Positions 65-6,144 of a DNA stretch of 6,706 bases are shown one piece after another; positions within the stretch are counted from its first letter, which is position 1; every line of letters starts with the position of its first letter. Under the pieces are notes generated by a model. It was not told the origin of the DNA. It was given only the letters and a program-made list of their open reading frames with translations, and ran no database searches. Made by a program: the position numbers and the translations under genes. Source of the DNA: Sediminibacterium sp. (GTDB lineage Bacteria > Bacteroidota > Bacteroidia > Chitinophagales > Chitinophagaceae); NCBI GenBank assembly GCA_023263235.1, contig JALQXE010000069.1, positions 1-6,706 of the forward strand, given 5' to 3'.

Positions 65-137
65 GGGGAATTAGCTCAGTTGGTCGAGCGCTTGCATGGC
101 ATGCAAGAGGTCAGCGGTTCGAACCCGCTATTCTCCA
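65..137 (+). tRNA. tRNA-Ala, anticodon GGC
   Basis: A full cloverleaf can be folded by eye. The acceptor stem pairs 65-71 with 130-136, the D-stem pairs GCTC (74-77) with GAGC (86-89), the anticodon stem pairs CTTGC (91-95) with GCAAG (103-107), and the T-stem pairs AGCGG (113-117) with CCGCT (125-129) around TTCGAAC. The seven-base loop ATGGCAT places GGC (98-100) as anticodon, which reads GCC/GCU alanine codons. The third acceptor pair is G67:T134, the G3:U70 wobble that is the classic alanine identity element, and A137 is the discriminator. The bases after it are CAT, so the CCA tail is not encoded and must be added after processing. The next gene's ATG begins at 141, only three bases after the discriminator. 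Confidence 0.97.
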
Positions 138-140
138 CAT

Positions 141-2552
141 ATGAGGTATTTAAAGATTTGGTTGTTTTTCATTGGCTGTGTTCTATGTTTTAACCATGGG
201 TTTGCTCAATCCATTGCAGTTAAGGTGAAAGTGACAGATAAGTCGAATAAGCCTTTTAAAAATGCGGTGGTCATGTATCAGCAAAAAAATACAACTACTG
301 ATATTTTTACACCGCAAAAAGCTAGAAAAGTTTTAACTGATACTTTTGGATTTGCTAGCTTGCCCGTAGACAGTACAAAAAGTTATTTTATTAGAATTAC
401 TTGGGTAGGATACCAAAATTTTGATACCACAATTCAGTTTACTCAATTACAAGATCAAGGATTTATTTTAAAAGAAGCAGCTACGATGTTGAATGAAGTA
501 GTTGTAAAATCATCTAAGCCATTAATTCGTCAAGAAGATGATAAATCTATAGTGGATCCTGAGCCATTGGCCGCAAGTAGTACCAATGCTTTTGAAACCA
601 TTGAGAAAACACCTGGTATATTTACGGACCAGGATGGAAATATTTATTTAAATGGTTTGTCTCCTGCTGCGATACAAATTAATGGACGAGATTTAAAAAT
701 GAGTCCTACAGATATTGCTATTCTTTTAAAAAGTTTACCCCCTAATGCAATTCAAAAAATTGAATTAATAAGAACACCTTCTGCTAAATATGATGCATCT
801 GGTGGTGGGGGTGTGGTTAATATTGTATTAATGAAAGGTATTAAGTTAGGGGTAAATGGCTCAGTGAATACGGGTTTTGCACAAGGCTTATATGGAAATC
901 AGTTTATTGGTTTTAATTTGGCCAATAACAATGATAAGCTTAATTCTTATGTGAATGCACAATATAGCAATAACAACGGGTATACTATATTAAACTCCGA
1001 CCGTAGTGTTACTTTGGATACTTTGTTAAGGCAAAATGCAAGAACTGTTTCTCCGAACACTTCCATTAATATAGGGTATGGCTTTGGTAAAACATTTGGT
1101 GAAAATTGGGAATTGAATTATGATGGAAGATTGAGTCAAAATAAGTCTGATAACAATACAGTAAATGCTTCTATTGTTAAAGTGTTATCGCTCAATAAAA
1201 ATTTAAGTGAATTAAATTCATTGGTTCACAATAATGCCAATAATAAATTCATAAATCAATCCTTTAGGGCTAAATATAAATTGGACACTGTTGGAGGGGA
1301 ATGGACAAATGATTTATCATTCAATTTTTCGAATAGTAATACCAATCAAGATTATACAAATACAATTATAGGTAATACAGGTTTATTTGGTGGCAATGGA
1401 ACATTTGGAACCGACCGTAGTTATTTTACTTATCAAACAGATTTTAAAAAAAGATGGTTAGGACTAAGTACAGAAGCAGGATTAAAAACTTCCACCTTAT
1501 ATTTTGAAAACCAATCAAATTATACAAAGACGGTACAGAATGTAATAAGTCCCGATCCCTTTAGAACCAATAGCTTTACCTATACCGAGCAAATAAATGC
1601 TGCTTATGTGCAAGGTGCAAAAACATGGGGCCCTGTTATTTTAAAAGTAGGTACAAGGTTTGAACAAACCATTATGCAAGGGCATCAATTAGTGCCTAAG
1701 GACACTACATTTTCTTTAAATAGAACCGATGCTTTCCCATATGTTTATTTAAGTAGGAAATTATTTAAGATAATGGAATATGAAATGCGTGCCTTTTTGG
1801 TATATCGAAAAACCATTAGTCGTCCTTCCTATGATTTTTTAAATCCCTTTGCAAAGTATATTGATCCATTTCTTTATGAAGTAGGTAATCCAAATTTAAA
1901 GCCTCAGTTTACCAATAATTATGAGGTAAATGTAAGTGTTGATGACAAACCTATATTTGCATATGGCGTGAATGAAACAAAAGATATATTTACCAATGTG
2001 GTATATCAATCTCCCACCAATAAGCAAGTGAGTTATAGGACCTATGATAATTTAGGAAAAAGTAGAGAAACCTATTTTAGAATTATTGGAGTTATTCCTC
2101 CCGGTAAAAAGTTCTTTGCTGTATTAGGCACTCAGTATAACAGAAATGAGTACAACGGTTTTTATGAAGGGAAGCCTATTGCATTTAATAAGGGCACATG
2201 GACTTTTTTTACATTTCAATCTCTTAAATTAGGCAGCCTTTCAACTTTAACATTAAATGGTTTTTGGAGATTAAGTGGGCAACAGCAGTTTTATGAATTG
2301 TCTAATTTCGGATCTTTAAACACGTCTATCAATCGTCAATTCTTGAATAAGAAATTAGTTCTTACAGCAAGTTATAATGACTTTCTGTTTACCAATAAAA
2401 ATAATTTCACATTAAAGCAGGGTTCTCAAAATGCGGTGGGCTTTAGAGAAAATGATACGCGAAGGTGGGGTTTGTCCTTAAGGTATAATTTTGGTTTTAA
2501 ACCCAAAGAGAACAAAATGGATATGTTGGAAATGGACAATGATAAAAACTAA
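141..2552 (+). CDS. Outer membrane beta-barrel family protein (TonB-dependent-receptor-like)
   Basis: This 803-residue protein is predicted to sit in the outer membrane. An N-terminal signal peptide (MRYLK, hydrophobic core to about residue 18, then GFAQ; probable cleavage near 22/23) is followed by a carboxypeptidase-regulatory-like beta-sandwich at about 25-110. A receptor plug-like region spans about 118-235: it starts at LNEVVVKS and contains a TPGIFTDQDGNIYLNG stretch, the QINGRDLKMSP motif, and YDASGGGGVVNIVL at the end. The rest is rich in alternating aromatic/polar beta strands with Asn-rich loops. The last strand-like segment, LSLRYNFGF (about 778-786), is followed by a 17-residue charged tail. 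This order matches the OMP_b-brl_3 type of barrel protein common in Bacteroidota; the ligand cannot be read from sequence. The open frame extends upstream to an ATG at 96, but that part is tRNA; the ATG at 141 sits directly before the signal peptide and is preferred. No Shine-Dalgarno sequence is visible. The gene ends against the transporter gene with overlapping stops. Confidence 0.9.
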   Translation: MRYLKIWLFFIGCVLCFNHGFAQSIAVKVKVTDKSNKPFKNAVVMYQQKNTTTDIFTPQKARKVLTDTFGFASLPVDSTKSYFIRITWVGYQNFDTTIQFTQLQDQGFILKEAATMLNEVVVKSSKPLIRQEDDKSIVDPEPLAASSTNAFETIEKTPGIFTDQDGNIYLNGLSPAAIQINGRDLKMSPTDIAILLKSLPPNAIQKIELIRTPSAKYDASGGGGVVNIVLMKGIKLGVNGSVNTGFAQGLYGNQFIGFNLANNNDKLNSYVNAQYSNNNGYTILNSDRSVTLDTLLRQNARTVSPNTSINIGYGFGKTFGENWELNYDGRLSQNKSDNNTVNASIVKVLSLNKNLSELNSLVHNNANNKFINQSFRAKYKLDTVGGEWTNDLSFNFSNSNTNQDYTNTIIGNTGLFGGNGTFGTDRSYFTYQTDFKKRWLGLSTEAGLKTSTLYFENQSNYTKTVQNVISPDPFRTNSFTYTEQINAAYVQGAKTWGPVILKVGTRFEQTIMQGHQLVPKDTTFSLNRTDAFPYVYLSRKLFKIMEYEMRAFLVYRKTISRPSYDFLNPFAKYIDPFLYEVGNPNLKPQFTNNYEVNVSVDDKPIFAYGVNETKDIFTNVVYQSPTNKQVSYRTYDNLGKSRETYFRIIGVIPPGKKFFAVLGTQYNRNEYNGFYEGKPIAFNKGTWTFFTFQSLKLGSLSTLTLNGFWRLSGQQQFYELSNFGSLNTSINRQFLNKKLVLTASYNDFLFTNKNNFTLKQGSQNAVGFRENDTRRWGLSLRYNFGFKPKENKMDMLEMDNDKN

Positions 2553-3757
2553 GCAGTTATTTTTTCAATCACTGCAAATACACTCATGGTTCCCATGAGT
2601 AATACAACCAGCCATCCACAAATTTGAATCCAATAAGGGTATGCGTACTGTTTAAGTATAGGCAATTTACGGCTCGCAATAAGCATTATGGCTAATGCAA
2701 ATGGTAAAATAAACCCGTTTACCAATCCAGCTAACAAAAGTAATTCTTTAGGCTTTCCCAATAATACAAATAATAGGGTTGTGAAAATGATAAAGCCACT
2801 GATAATAAATCTTTCTTGTTGAATAAACTTGAATTGTAAGTGTTTCATAAAACTAAAGGAAGTGTAGGATGCCCCAATTACAGAAGAAATGGCAGCACTC
2901 CATAAAACAATGCCAAAAATAAATAAACCCCATCTTCCACCTGCCGATTCAAAAATGGTAGCTGCTGGATTATTTTTATCTAGATGAATTCCTTTGGTAA
3001 CTATTCCAACTGCAGCTAAAAATAAAATATAGCGCATTGCCGATGAAATAATGATACCAATGCTTGCACTCTTGGTTACAAATGGAATTTGTTCAGGCCC
3101 CGAAATGCCAGCATCAATTAAACGATGAGCCCCCGAAAAGGTGATATAACCACCCACTGTTCCACCCACAATGGTAACAATAGCAAGCAAAGAAATTTTT
3201 TCAGGGACAAATGTATGATGTACTGCATCTAAAATAGGTGGATGTGCAGCGTATACAATTATTAAAGTGAGTCCAATTTTAATGATGCCTAAATATTTTG
3301 TGATGATGTCCAACATTTTTCCAATTTCTTGTATCCAAAAAATAAGAATGGCAATGACGCCACTAATCATAGCGCCTTTTGCAAAAGAAATGCCAGTTAA
3401 AATATTTAATGCCAATCCGCAGCCTGCAATATTTCCAATATTAAAAGCCAAACCGCCTAATACTACTAAAAGTGAAAGTGAATTTCCTAAACCTGGTAAT
3501 AATTCGTTGGCTATTTCTTGAGCACGCATACCGCTTAGTGTAATGCAACGCCAAATATTAATTTGAGCGCCTAAATCCAATAATATTGAAATAAGAATTA
3601 CAAAGCCAAAGCTGGTTAATAGTTGTTCAGTATAAACTGAGGTTTGTGTCAAAAAGCCTGGACCAATAGAAGAATTTGCCATCAGGAATGCAGCACCTAT
3701 ACTTACTCCTGTTAAAGAGGGGAGTGCGCCAACTTTACTTGTATTTTTTAATTTCAA
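2549..3757 (-). CDS. Nramp-superfamily transporter of the YcsG type, last gene of the 5-oxoprolinase operon
   Basis: This is a 402-residue integral inner-membrane protein with about 11 hydrophobic segments (roughly 16-38, 47-66, 93-120, 127-146, 153-172, 188-210, 230-255, 276-300, 317-335, 338-362, 376-397). The TM1 segment with IGPGFLTQTS (31-40), TM3 LAFNIGNIAG (103-112), TM6 GGTVGGYITFSGAHR (198-212) and TM10 LVNGFILPF (345-353) resemble Nramp relatives such as Bacillus subtilis YcsG, also encoded beside pxpA-type genes. The metal-binding DPGN and MPH motifs of true Nramp proteins are replaced by GPGF (32-35) and GGY (202-204), so transport of Mn or Fe is doubtful; 5-oxoproline or a related compound is an inference. 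The start is TTG at 3757, inside the end of pxpA. The frame is closed by TAA shortly upstream, and the first ATG (codon 26) would cut into TM1. The 23-base overlap with pxpA suggests translational coupling. Confidence 0.88.
   Translation of the reverse strand: MKLKNTSKVGALPSLTGVSIGAAFLMANSSIGPGFLTQTSVYTEQLLTSFGFVILISILLDLGAQINIWRCITLSGMRAQEIANELLPGLGNSLSLLVVLGGLAFNIGNIAGCGLALNILTGISFAKGAMISGVIAILIFWIQEIGKMLDIITKYLGIIKIGLTLIIVYAAHPPILDAVHHTFVPEKISLLAIVTIVGGTVGGYITFSGAHRLIDAGISGPEQIPFVTKSASIGIIISSAMRYILFLAAVGIVTKGIHLDKNNPAATIFESAGGRWGLFIFGIVLWSAAISSVIGASYTSFSFMKHLQFKFIQQERFIISGFIIFTTLLFVLLGKPKELLLLAGLVNGFILPFALAIMLIASRKLPILKQYAYPYWIQICGWLVVLLMGTMSVFAVIEKITA
2582..2600. repeat. Perfect 8-bp hairpin near the convergent gene ends
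   Basis: ACTCATGG (2582-2589) and CCATGAGT (2593-2600) are exact inverted arms around a three-base loop. The hairpin lies 30 bases after the plus-strand beta-barrel stop and inside the last codons of the minus-strand transporter (Met-Gly-Thr-Met-Ser). There is no T-run directly after it on the plus strand, so it is not a textbook intrinsic terminator. It could still slow or protect the 3' end of the plus-strand transcript, as the two genes leave no intergenic space for a terminator. It may equally be a coincidence of codon choice. Confidence 0.35.
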
Positions 3758-4484
3758 TATGATGTGTATTTAATGCTTCATGAATCGCCTCAGAAAATTC
3801 AATAGCGTTAGGGCCATCTCCATGAATACAAATGGTATCCACTTTTAAATCAATGATTGCTCCTTGAAGGGTAGTAACTTTATTTTCTTTAATAACTTGA
3901 ATTACTTGTTTTTTTACTTCTTCCACATCTTCAATCATGGAGTGATCTAAATGTCTTGCACTAAGTTGTCCGTTGTTTTGATAGGTTCTATCTGCAAATG
4001 CTTCTCTTGCAAAAGGTTGCCCTGCCATGATGGCTTCATGTATGGTATGACTTCCACTTAATCCATAAATAATTAAAGTAGGGTCAATAGCTTGAATGGT
4101 TTGAATGTAGGTTTTACTTAGAAAAGCATCTTTTGCACAATCGTTGTATAATGCACCGTGTAATTTTACGTGATGAATTTTCACTCCCATTTGAATTGCA
4201 ACTTTTTCAAATTGATAATATTGCTCTGCAATGAGTTCAGCCAATTCAAGTACCGAAACAAATTGTGATACCCTTCCAAAATTTTCTCTATCATTATAAC
4301 TTGGATGCGCACCAATGGCTACATTATTTTGTAATGCTATTTCTATTGTTCTTTTAATTGAATCTGCATTTCCAGCATGTCCACCACATGCAATATTAGC
4401 ACTACTAATATAGGGCATGATATAGGTTTCATTACCCATGCCTTCTCCCATATCACAGTTAATATCAATACTTAAATGTTGCAT
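3735..4484 (-). CDS. pxpA: 5-oxoprolinase subunit PxpA (LamB/YcsF family)
   Basis: This cytoplasmic 249-residue protein is the A subunit of the ATP-dependent prokaryotic 5-oxoprolinase (5-oxo-L-proline + ATP + 2 H2O to L-glutamate + ADP + Pi), acting with PxpB and PxpC. The length is typical of the family, and its motifs occur in order: IDINCDMGE (6-14), SANIACGGHAGN (28-39), GAHPSYNDRENFGR (58-71), VKLHGALYN (106-114), REAFADR (160-166) and ICIHGD (218-223). The Asp, His and Glu residues in these blocks are the ones expected to form the active site. One small departure is Leu108, where the family usually has Pro (VKPHGALYN). The ATG at 4484 starts right before the first conserved block and overlaps the end of pxpC by 20 bases; the 3' end overlaps the transporter start by 23 bases. 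These overlaps indicate one polycistronic, translationally coupled unit. Confidence 0.96.
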   Translation of the reverse strand: MQHLSIDINCDMGEGMGNETYIMPYISSANIACGGHAGNADSIKRTIEIALQNNVAIGAHPSYNDRENFGRVSQFVSVLELAELIAEQYYQFEKVAIQMGVKIHHVKLHGALYNDCAKDAFLSKTYIQTIQAIDPTLIIYGLSGSHTIHEAIMAGQPFAREAFADRTYQNNGQLSARHLDHSMIEDVEEVKKQVIQVIKENKVTTLQGAIIDLKVDTICIHGDGPNAIEFSEAIHEALNTHHIEIKKYK

Positions 4485-5391
4485 ACATTTCTTTGTACAA
4501 TGTTTGTGCAGTTTCTAAATTGGTTATGTTAAATTTAAATGAAACACCTGATTTCATTTGTGCAAACCTTGGTAAATCTACCAAAATTATTTGACCCAAA
4601 TTTGCATACCCCCCAATGGTTTGGTGATCGGCCATTAATACAATTATACTTCCATTAGGCAGCAATTGAAGGGTCCCCATAGTTACAGCGCTGGATAAGT
4701 TAGTATTAGGTTTACTTAAATGAAGTAAAGGGCCGGATAAATGATAACCCATTCTGTTTCTTTGTCCCGAAATGGTAAAGGATGCGTTGATTAAATCATA
4801 TAAAGCAGTTTGAGATAGGTCCTTCCATGCGGGTCCCGGTAAAATTCTTAAAGGGGTATTGTTGCTAAAAACATTGCTTTGAATTTTATCAATAAGTGTA
4901 TGATTCAATTGTTCATTTATATTTTTCACTTTGTTTAAATCATTTGGATAAAGTGATGAAAAAGATAAAGTATCATTTGTATTTAAACGCTTTCCATTAT
5001 ATGCATGGCTGTTTAACCAGTCTAGAGCTAAATAGGACCCTTTTATACCCAAATAGGCAACGCTTCCTTCCAATGGTTGCAACATGGTAAGCACATCGTT
5101 TTTATTTACCAATATAGGCGTATGCAAAGCAATGCTTTTTTCATTGACCAAGGGGACAAAGTTTGCACCTGTAATACATATTATTGAATCTTGTAAAAAT
5201 TGAATTTTACTACTCGGAAAATGCAATTCAATTACGGGGGTGTTATCGTTATTTTGTAAAATGTAATTTGCTAATGAAGCGGATAAATTATCCATGCAAC
5301 CATTAGGAGGTATTCCTAAATGTTGGTAACCATATCTGCCGTTATCTTGTAATGAGTCGGCTAAGCCTTTATGTAATATTTTAACTGACAT
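4465..5391 (-). CDS. pxpC: 5-oxoprolinase subunit PxpC (KipA / biotin-dependent carboxyltransferase-like family)
   Basis: This 308-residue cytoplasmic protein is one of the two KipI/KipA-like subunits that make up 5-oxoprolinase with PxpA. The N-terminal part has the family signature KGLADSLQDNGRYGYQHLGI followed by PPNGCMDN (8-35), then ITGANF (73-78). The C-terminal half has LPGPAW (184-189), SGQRNRMGYHLSGP (208-221), VLMADHQTIGGY (251-262) and the Asp-Leu-Pro-Arg block DLPRFAQ (272-278). The name KipA comes from the Bacillus sporulation-kinase regulator, and older annotation may call it allophanate hydrolase subunit 2 or urea amidolyase-like. It is much shorter than a urea amidolyase, and the pxpA/pxpB context settles the role. 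The ATG at 5391 follows the pxpB stop by only five bases, and the end overlaps pxpA by 20 bases. The region around 150-180 is Asn/Lys-rich and poorly conserved. Confidence 0.95.
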   Translation of the reverse strand: MSVKILHKGLADSLQDNGRYGYQHLGIPPNGCMDNLSASLANYILQNNDNTPVIELHFPSSKIQFLQDSIICITGANFVPLVNEKSIALHTPILVNKNDVLTMLQPLEGSVAYLGIKGSYLALDWLNSHAYNGKRLNTNDTLSFSSLYPNDLNKVKNINEQLNHTLIDKIQSNVFSNNTPLRILPGPAWKDLSQTALYDLINASFTISGQRNRMGYHLSGPLLHLSKPNTNLSSAVTMGTLQLLPNGSIIVLMADHQTIGGYANLGQIILVDLPRFAQMKSGVSFKFNITNLETAQTLYKEMYATFKY

Positions 5392-5396
5392 ATTTT

Positions 5397-6131
5397 TTAT
5401 GCATACTCATTTAAATAATCAAATTCATGTTTACTAATCTTACAAAATTGAATACGATCTCCTACTTTAAATTTTGTTAAAGTATCTGATTGTGGATCAA
5501 ATATCTTCCAAGGTGTTCTTCCAATAATTTGCCAACCCCCGGGGCAATCACTGGGGTAAATGCCTGTTTGAAAACCAGCAATACCAACACTTCCCGCAGG
5601 TACTATTTTGCGGGGTACACTATGTCTGGCAATATTTATTTTTTCATCTACCATTCCCATGTAGGTAAAGCCTGGTAAAAATCCAATACTATAAACATCA
5701 TAAATTTTTGATGTGTGCATTTGTATAATTTCTTCTGCACTAATTTTATTTTGTTTACTTATGTTTTCAATATCTAAAGCAAAAATGTTTTCGTAACAAA
5801 CAGGAACCTCATAAAGTATAGTATCATTTATAATTTCTTTTGAAATTGTATTTTCAAATTCACTTAATATTTCCTTGCTAAATAATGCTAATTGTTCATT
5901 TGCATTTTTTGTATTTGAAAAAAAAGTTGTGATATCGTATACAAGCGTAAGTGTGTGATAGGAGGGAATGATGTCTAAAATTCCTTTTATTTTTTTCGCA
6001 GAAACAAATGCAGTCAATTGTTTTAATTTATTTAAAATCAAAACATCCATTTTAGCCTCTAATGCAAACACAATTGCATGATCTCCTAAATTAAAAATGG
6101 TCCAATCTTTAAATTTATTATGCATGTTCAT
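5397..6131 (-). CDS. pxpB: 5-oxoprolinase subunit PxpB (KipI / allophanate hydrolase subunit 1-like family)
   Basis: This is the first gene of the operon, 244 residues from the chosen ATG. PxpB pairs with PxpC, and the complex works with PxpA to open 5-oxoproline to glutamate at the cost of ATP. Family blocks are present: FNLGDHAIVF near the N-terminus, PVCY (110-113), SIGFLPGFTYMG (148-159), VPRKIVPAGSVGIAG (172-186) with QTGIYP next, CPGGWQIIGRTP (196-207), and GDRIQF (224-229) near the end, all expected of the cyclophilin-like fold of KipI proteins. The open frame extends to a TTG at 6143, but two ATG codons lie downstream at 6131 and 6125. Either ATG keeps the whole conserved domain, and a possible promoter at 6145-6152 would start transcription after the TTG, so 6131 was chosen; 6125 is nearly as likely. 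The gene is divergent from the SusC-family gene. Confidence 0.93.
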   Translation of the reverse strand: MNMHNKFKDWTIFNLGDHAIVFALEAKMDVLILNKLKQLTAFVSAKKIKGILDIIPSYHTLTLVYDITTFFSNTKNANEQLALFSKEILSEFENTISKEIINDTILYEVPVCYENIFALDIENISKQNKISAEEIIQMHTSKIYDVYSIGFLPGFTYMGMVDEKINIARHSVPRKIVPAGSVGIAGFQTGIYPSDCPGGWQIIGRTPWKIFDPQSDTLTKFKVGDRIQFCKISKHEFDYLNEYA

Positions 6132-6144
6132 TTTGTTATCCAAA

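What the first reader, a model, noticed from the sequence alone, without database searches (positions are those of the whole stretch)
2549..3757. Nramp relative in the 5-oxoprolinase operon that lacks both canonical metal-binding motifs
Seen in the sequence: TM1 has GPGF (residues 32-35) where true Nramp metal transporters have DPGN, and TM6 has GGY (202-204) where they have MPH, so the Asp, Asn and Met metal ligands are all missing. Known: the Nramp fold belongs to the LeuT/APC superfamily, many members of which carry amino acids, and a YcsG-type relative sits beside pxpA-type genes in Bacillus subtilis. Inference: this subfamily carries an organic substrate tied to the operon, such as 5-oxoproline, rather than Mn or Fe. 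Automatic annotation as a divalent metal transporter would then be misleading.
Basis: partly seen in the sequence, partly recalled or inferred. Interest (0 to 1): 0.7.

Follow-up and report, generated by a model that had tools for sequence, protein, structure and literature searches.

The report
Nramp-like transporter likely carrying 5-oxoproline
This gene is labelled a metal transporter, but it has lost the residues that hold the metal and travels with enzymes that break open the small ring molecule 5-oxoproline, so it most likely imports that nutrient instead of manganese or iron.

Summary
The 402-aa minus-strand protein (2549-3757) ends a pxpB-pxpC-pxpA-transporter operon and has GPGF in TM1 and GGY in TM6 where metal Nramps have DPGN and MPH; the TM3 acids are Asn too. 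It belongs to the YcsG/PxpT subfamily, whose substrate is disputed in print: C. glutamicum PxpT is needed for growth on 5-oxoproline, while YcsG and MumT were reported as Mn importers. Two comparative results favour 5-oxoproline. (1) In 41 genomes of the Dyadobacter genus group none has PxpA, yet 38 keep the transporter, all 38 directly beside a different enzyme type (fused hydantoinase/oxoprolinase A-B). (2) A second Nramp-related subfamily (GPGT, VPY), also without these ligands, sits beside pxpABC in flavobacteria and Bacillota. In 148 Bacteroidota genomes one or other subfamily occurs in 29 of 34 PxpA-positive and 0 of 114 other genomes; high-scoring canonical Nramps show no such link. Of 45 Nramp-type neighbours in 104 pxpA loci none was canonical. 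Limits: no transport assay, 20 Acidobacteriota pxpA loci had no such neighbour, and one origin of the two subfamilies is not ruled out. The 5-oxoproline role of the window's own subfamily is already published.

The parts
2549..3757 (-). Nramp-like transporter, YcsG/PxpT subfamily, 402 aa (TTG start)
   Evidence: (PF01566, 77.9 bits)
3653..3664 (-). TM1 unwound-region codons G32-P33-G34-F35 (DPGN in metal Nramps)
3431..3442 (-). TM3 codons N106-I-G-N109 (D131 and E134 columns of DraNramp)
3146..3154 (-). TM6 unwound-region codons G202-G203-Y204 (MPH in metal Nramps)
3735..4484 (-). pxpA, 5-oxoprolinase subunit A (LamB/YcsF)
4465..5391 (-). pxpC (CT_A_B domain; below the NCBIfam PxpC equivalog cut-off)
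5397..6143 (-). pxpB (CT_C_D domain)

Best explanation
The gene encodes a LeuT-fold secondary transporter of the YcsG/PxpT subfamily that brings 5-oxoproline (or a very close small lactam acid) into the cell, where PxpABC of the same operon opens the ring to glutamate with ATP. Shown here: sequence, fold model, lost ligand columns, genomic linkage. Inferred: the substrate, and that the glycine-rich breaks of TM1 (GPGF) and TM6 (GGY), with N106, N109, Y204 and N347 nearby, form an uncharged pocket in which backbone amides hold the carboxylate as in APC amino-acid carriers (recalled). The coupling ion is unknown, since the TM3 acids of the Nramp proton path are gone.
Against: No transport assay. 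Two papers report Mn effects for members (PMC10448178, PMC5050338). Loss of the Met alone barely affects Mn transport, and DraNramp D56A still binds Mn (PMC10185341, passages), so lost ligands do not exclude some metal binding. 10 of 90 loci show no Pxp gene: L024, L033 and L046 lie at contig ends and L067 is the swap, but Runella (L061, L084), Acidobacteria (L039, L087), L045 and Ilyobacter (L006) show no lactam enzyme that I could recognise or from the ORF starts. In 20 Acidobacteriota pxpA loci no Nramp-type neighbour was found, and 31 of 50 Bacillota and 8 of 34 Bacteroidota loci have none. Whether the Dyadobacter A-B enzyme acts on 5-oxoproline is not shown (nearest solved chain is called N-methylhydantoinase).
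Confidence: 0.82

Rival explanations
1. It is a Mn2+ importer with an unusual site, as claimed for YcsG (MntG) and MumT, and sits in the operon to supply metal to the enzyme.
For: [quoted passage not shown] Delta-mumT: less Mn by ICP-MS, complemented; grows in 3 mM Mn (PMC5050338, section 6).
Against: All side-chain ligands of the known site absent, columns neutral and nearly invariant. Canonical DPGN/MPH proteins are present separately in the window's close relative and in Bacillus tequilensis. The partners are enzymes of two unrelated families. Deletion of pxpT blocks growth on 5-OP but not on glucose (PMC13274462, passages).
Confidence: 0.08
2. It moves 5-oxoproline, and Mn (or a Mn-5-oxoproline complex) as well, so both sets of published phenotypes are direct.
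For: Would reconcile PMC13274462 with PMC10448178 and PMC5050338. NRMT moves Mg2+ and Mn2+ with an altered site (PMC8806188, passages).
Against: EleNRMT keeps the TM1 Asp; this subfamily does not. No known site for a second ion.
Confidence: 0.07
3. It carries another small lactam, hydantoin or glutamate-derived compound (such as 5-oxo-D-proline), or exports 5-oxoproline for detoxification.
For: 24 of 90 loci also hold a D-glutamate cyclase family gene (family name); the Dyadobacter partner is nearest to N-methylhydantoinase and caprolactamase entries.
Against: C. glutamicum growth data fit import of 5-oxo-L-proline. No cyclase gene is in the window.
Confidence: 0.12

Closest known systems
PxpT (Cg1142) of Corynebacterium glutamicum and YcsG/MntG of Bacillus subtilis
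   Same: Same subfamily by sequence: the Bacillus tequilensis protein in L044 (taken as the YcsG orthologue by gene order and kinship) is 56% identical to the window protein and has GPGF/GGY; the YcsG model 9a52 is 54-55% identical. Same operon partners.
   Different: The window shows no D-glutamate cyclase or regulator gene beside the operon and has the order pxpB-pxpC-pxpA-transporter. The C. glutamicum and B. subtilis sequences themselves were not fetched.
MumT of Acinetobacter baumannii (mum operon)
   Same: Same subfamily: L004 protein 44-45% identical, GPGF/GGY; neighbours are PxpA, D-glutamate cyclase family, fused PxpB-C and biotin carboxylase.
   Different: Reported as a Mn importer in a urea-carboxylase operon; no biotin carboxylase is in the window. 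That L004 is the mum locus is inferred from gene order.
EleNRMT (Mg2+/Mn2+ Nramp-related transporter)
   Same: Same LeuT fold, among the closest solved structures (Foldseek TM 0.83); also without the Nramp proton path (PMC8806188, passages).
   Different: Keeps the TM1 Asp (DAGG) and the TM3 Glu; 16-17% identity (PMC8806188).
Canonical MntH/DraNramp
   Different: DPGN, MPH, D131 and E134 all replaced; far below the NCBIfam MntH cut-off (44.6 against 430).

Membership tests
Canonical Nramp/MntH metal transporter (SLC11) | TM1 DPGN | tested here: not met
   GPGF in the window and in 104 of 104 sequences with TM6 GGY and a readable TM1
Canonical Nramp/MntH metal transporter (SLC11) | TM6 MPH | tested here: not met
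   GGY, 104 of 104 GPGF sequences with letters there
Canonical Nramp/MntH metal transporter (SLC11) | TM3 acids D131 and E134 (proton path) | tested here: not met
   N106 (103 of 105, S in 2) and N109 (105 of 105)
Canonical Nramp/MntH metal transporter (SLC11) | LeuT fold of the Nramp type | tested here: met
   (predicted model)
Canonical Nramp/MntH metal transporter (SLC11) | Transport of Mn2+/Fe2+ | not testable with these tools
   needs an assay; the Mn claims I saw for relatives are whole-cell data
NRMT (Nramp-related Mg transporter) | TM1 DxxG with TM6 TxxA/T (PMC8806188, passages) | tested here: not met
   G-P-G-F and T200-V-G-G203
YcsG/PxpT subfamily | Monophyletic sequence group with GPGF/GGY | tested here: met
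   window inside a group of 20 rows with 100/100 support, motif columns left out of the tree
YcsG/PxpT subfamily | Gene next to pxpABC | tested here: met
   window operon; relatives L010-L016
YcsG/PxpT subfamily | Needed for growth on or uptake of 5-oxoproline | not testable with these tools
   shown with complementation for C. glutamicum PxpT (PMC13274462, passages); for ycsG a polar effect was not excluded (PMC10448178, passages)

The most novel reading that the evidence does not exclude
5-Oxoproline uptake is a job taken by two separate Nramp-related subfamilies (GPGF/GGY and GPGT/VPY), possibly independently, each with the metal Asp replaced by Gly, the TM6 His by Tyr and the TM3 Glu by Asn, and each a genomic partner of 5-oxoprolinase. 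The first was kept while its enzyme partner changed from PxpABC to an unrelated A-B hydantoinase/oxoprolinase in the Dyadobacter group. Many proteins now named Mn/Fe transporters (including the published MntG and MumT) would be lactam-acid importers whose Mn phenotypes are indirect.
Probability: 0.5. Interest if true: 0.72.

Novelty: new member of a known kind. Interest (0 to 1): 0.58.

Why it matters
The substrate of this widespread group is disputed in print (Mn or 5-oxoproline). The columns, the partner swap and the second subfamily give evidence that does not depend on whole-cell Mn readings, and they point to clean tests in harmless strains. If right, many annotations as Mn/Fe or divalent metal transporters are misleading (for example 'NRAMP family divalent metal transporter' in plasmid records), and the Nramp fold would hold a substrate switch between metal ions and an organic acid whose determinants can be read from sequence.

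Tried and rejected
Shifted ligands: rejected; whole-protein alignments keep the columns in register and no Asp, Asn or Met stands within the TM1 GPGF or TM6 GGY stretches. Independent origin of the two subfamilies: not shown. Holding GPGF and GPGT together costs 3.6 log units, p-AU 0.143; holding GPGT with DPGN costs 1.0, p-AU 0.383. The GPGF stem is very long (3.41), so its place is unsure.

AF2 model of the GPGT subfamily: pLDDT 72, not used. Regulator palindrome upstream of pxpB: no repeats found, and promoter-like matches no better than shuffles. Other transporters at pxp loci without an Nramp: TRAP parts (clusters of 3 loci), an MFS cluster of 8 loci and ABC parts (4 and 6 loci) recur; fits replacement of the transporter but was not counted further. 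Fisher values ignore kinship among genomes; its Bacillota line is circular, because those 14 genomes were picked from the pxpA side, and is not used.

Gaps. No GPGF or GPGT profile search was answered for Bacillota; in the PF01566 list the 14 genomes whose matches I read as GPGF by score and profile range are the 14 found at pxpA loci, and two weak groups (G227, G234) were not classified. PF01566 in Acidobacteriota did not complete. In the Bacteroidota PF01566 search the list of matches was cut; the canonical set (47 genomes) is the rows above 370 bits, of which 31 were read and all have DPGN. Two small PxpA fragments were not examined.

Papers. Judging by their listings, searches showed nothing on the second subfamily or the Dyadobacter arrangement (one search listed 20 of 30 papers); I did not open every paper listed, and the library lacks most subscription journals. 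The paper cited by others for the first ycsG test and the 2025 C. difficile pxp paper are not held (the ids in 12 and 124 were recalled) and are known to me only through passages of other papers.
Full report
Observation. The window holds a minus-strand run pxpB (5397-6143), pxpC (4465-5391), pxpA (3735-4484) and a 402-aa Nramp-family protein (2549-3757). The Pfam match to Nramp is real but modest (77.9 bits), and the score to the NCBIfam MntH model is a tenth of the cut-off (44.6 against 430).

Columns. A joint alignment of 178 Nramp-type proteins from fetched loci puts these residues in the DPGN and MPH columns. With later additions and identical sequences removed there are 188: GGY goes with GPGF in all 104 that show both stretches, MPH with DPGN in 35, VPY with GPGT in 28. 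In the 105 GPGF sequences (grouped by those letters) the M230 and H232 columns are G and Y in all 104 with letters there, D131 is N in 103 and S in 2, E134 is N in 105, and Q378 is G in 103 of 103. The DraNramp numbers and roles are from PMC10185341 (passages): D56, N59, M230 and two backbone carbonyls bind Mn, Q378 through water; D56A transports neither metal although it still binds Mn, and M230A hardly affects Mn transport. EleNRMT keeps the Asp and the Glu (PMC8806188, passages). So this subfamily is more stripped of metal ligands than NRMT.

What is in print. PMC13274462 (abstract and passages): C. glutamicum pxpT, 50% identical to YcsG, is required for growth on 5-oxoproline and complements; the authors do not exclude metal transport. 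PMC10448178 (passages): YcsG renamed MntG, a third Mn importer. PMC5050338 (passages, sections 6 and 7): MumT needed for Mn accumulation, in a 'urea carboxylase' operon, with urea use dependent on mumC. PMC12873925 (passages): Nramp-related proteins lack DPGN/MPH; a 'G-motif 3' group holds MntG, the NRMT-like group holds EleNRMT, and the rest are 'entirely uncharacterized'. So for the window's own subfamily both the motif loss and the 5-oxoproline role are already published, and the substrate is disputed.

Linkage, transporter side. In 90 loci (window, 9 plasmid-collection loci, 80 loci from the species collection) PxpA, PxpB or PxpC is present in 80; PxpA in 74, D-glutamate cyclase family in 24, biotin carboxylase in 8 (the cyclase name is). 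The 80 loci were found with a motif-based scan and are the best of 571. Organisms include Bacteroidota, Bacillota, Acidobacteriota, Pseudomonadota and a Deinococcus. The ten without any are L006, L024, L033, L039, L045, L046, L061, L067, L084 and L087; L024, L033 and L046 lie at contig ends.

Linkage, enzyme side. PxpA searches: 34 of 148 Bacteroidota genomes over the cut-off, 48 of 149 Bacillota genomes with 50 matches, 20 of 99 Acidobacteriota genomes with 22 matches. I examined 34, 50 and 20 loci, mostly about 5 kb each side where the contig allowed. Nramp-type neighbours: Bacteroidota 26 (20 GPGT, 6 GPGF), Bacillota 19 (14 GPGF, five of them fragments or cut, and 5 GPGT), Acidobacteriota 0, although one search had brought Acidobacteriota loci with both genes (for example L041, L049, L089). 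The other 59 loci have none. Of the 45 neighbours none is canonical by profile.

Second subfamily. The GPGT type (TM1 GPGT, TM6 V-P-Y; TM3 E in 23 or Q in 5, and N in 28; TM10 Q kept in 28) is nearer in sequence to NRMT and canonical Nramps (141 bits to EleNRMT; in five Bacillota members 212-221 bits to the DPGN profile against 78-94 to the GPGF profile) and is often named a divalent metal transporter. In the 20 flavobacterial-type loci that I took because the gene was adjacent, the order is transporter-pxpA-pxpB-pxpC throughout; the organism names rest on protein hits such as Maribacter and Zeaxanthinibacter. In Bacillota it sits in differently ordered clusters. A profile search (E <= 1e-100) of the same 148 Bacteroidota genomes finds it in 23, all PxpA-positive, 20 adjacent. 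GPGF (E <= 1e-60) is in 6, all PxpA-positive and adjacent, and no genome has both. Either type: 29 of 34 PxpA-positive, 0 of 114 others; Nramps above 370 bits: 6 of 34 against 41 of 114. These counts ignore kinship; many of the 23 are related. With motif columns left out, each subfamily is one group (99-100% support), but one common origin of the two is not rejected (p-AU 0.143), so convergence is not shown.

Partner swap. In Dyadobacter sp. CY356 (L067) the GPGF transporter follows a 1255-aa protein with hydantoinase/oxoprolinase A and B domains, nearest in the PDB to a 1288-aa N-methylhydantoinase and to chains of 6yra named 5-oxoprolinase and hydantoinase (NCBIfam points to caprolactamase far below cut-off). 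In 41 genomes drawn from that genus: PxpA in 0, transporter in 38, A-B enzyme in 39. In 30 loci read, all 30 have the enzyme's end upstream on the same strand and none a Pxp gene within the flank of at most about 1.5 kb. By coordinates all 38 pairs lie on one strand with the transporter 2-808 bases downstream. G468 and G493 lack both; G494 has the enzyme only. The transporter keeps GPGF and GGY (39 of 39 loci). In a tree of 40 members the six Dyadobacter-group rows are one clade next to Runella-type rows with neither enzyme nearby, and these lie among pxp-linked members. A Mn role tied to PxpABC does not predict this; a lactam-acid substrate does, provided the A-B enzyme acts on such a compound, which is not shown.

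MumT. L004 (A. baumannii) has GPGF/GGY and the order transporter, PxpA, D-glutamate cyclase family, fused PxpB-C, biotin carboxylase. This fits the mum order T-L-U-H-C, and no amidase domain shows in the H-position gene, so I read it as a biotin-linked relative of the pxp cluster (inference). Against this, PMC5050338 reports that urea use depends on mumC and that delta-mumT lowers Mn.

Verdict. Best explanation: 5-oxoproline importer, 0.82. The window itself is an ordinary member of a subfamily whose role is published but disputed. The partner swap and the second subfamily are what I did not find in print (listings of searches).

Noticed in passing
L139-L158 and L191, L193, L196, L199, L206: A second Nramp-related subfamily (TM1 GPGT, TM6 VPY) beside pxpABC in flavobacterial-type and Bacillota genomes; relatives are named metal transporters.
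   Followed up: yes
L067:6070-11131 and 38 genomes of the genus of G006: The PxpT-type transporter stands beside a fused hydantoinase/oxoprolinase A-B protein, with no PxpA in any of 41 genomes searched.
   Followed up: yes
L004:5920-12121: The A. baumannii locus matching the mum operon looks like a pxp-type cluster with a biotin carboxylase and a D-glutamate cyclase family gene rather than a urea amidolyase locus.
   Followed up: partly
L052, L055, L057, L058, L060, L063: Rossellomorea and Fictibacillus loci have pxpB-pxpC-transporter without a pxpA found in the locus.
   Followed up: partly
L290, L293, L294: Loci with PxpA and the transporter where no PxpB or PxpC was found with the window's proteins as query.
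   Followed up: no
L166-L170 (GVSH), L164-L165 (GAGD), L176, L177, L107, L099: Further divergent Nramp-family proteins of Bacteroidota without DPGN/MPH; no pxp neighbours where flanks were checked (L164-L170, L176, L177). Function unknown.
   Followed up: no
window 65-138 (+) and 141-2552 (+): A tRNA-Ala(GGC) lies largely inside the mechanical ORF 96-2552; the outer-membrane beta-barrel/TonB-type gene therefore more likely starts at ATG 141.
   Followed up: partly
pxpA loci without an Nramp, e.g. L195, L207, L271: TRAP and MFS transporter genes recur near pxpA where no Nramp-like gene is found, a possible alternative uptake route.
   Followed up: partly
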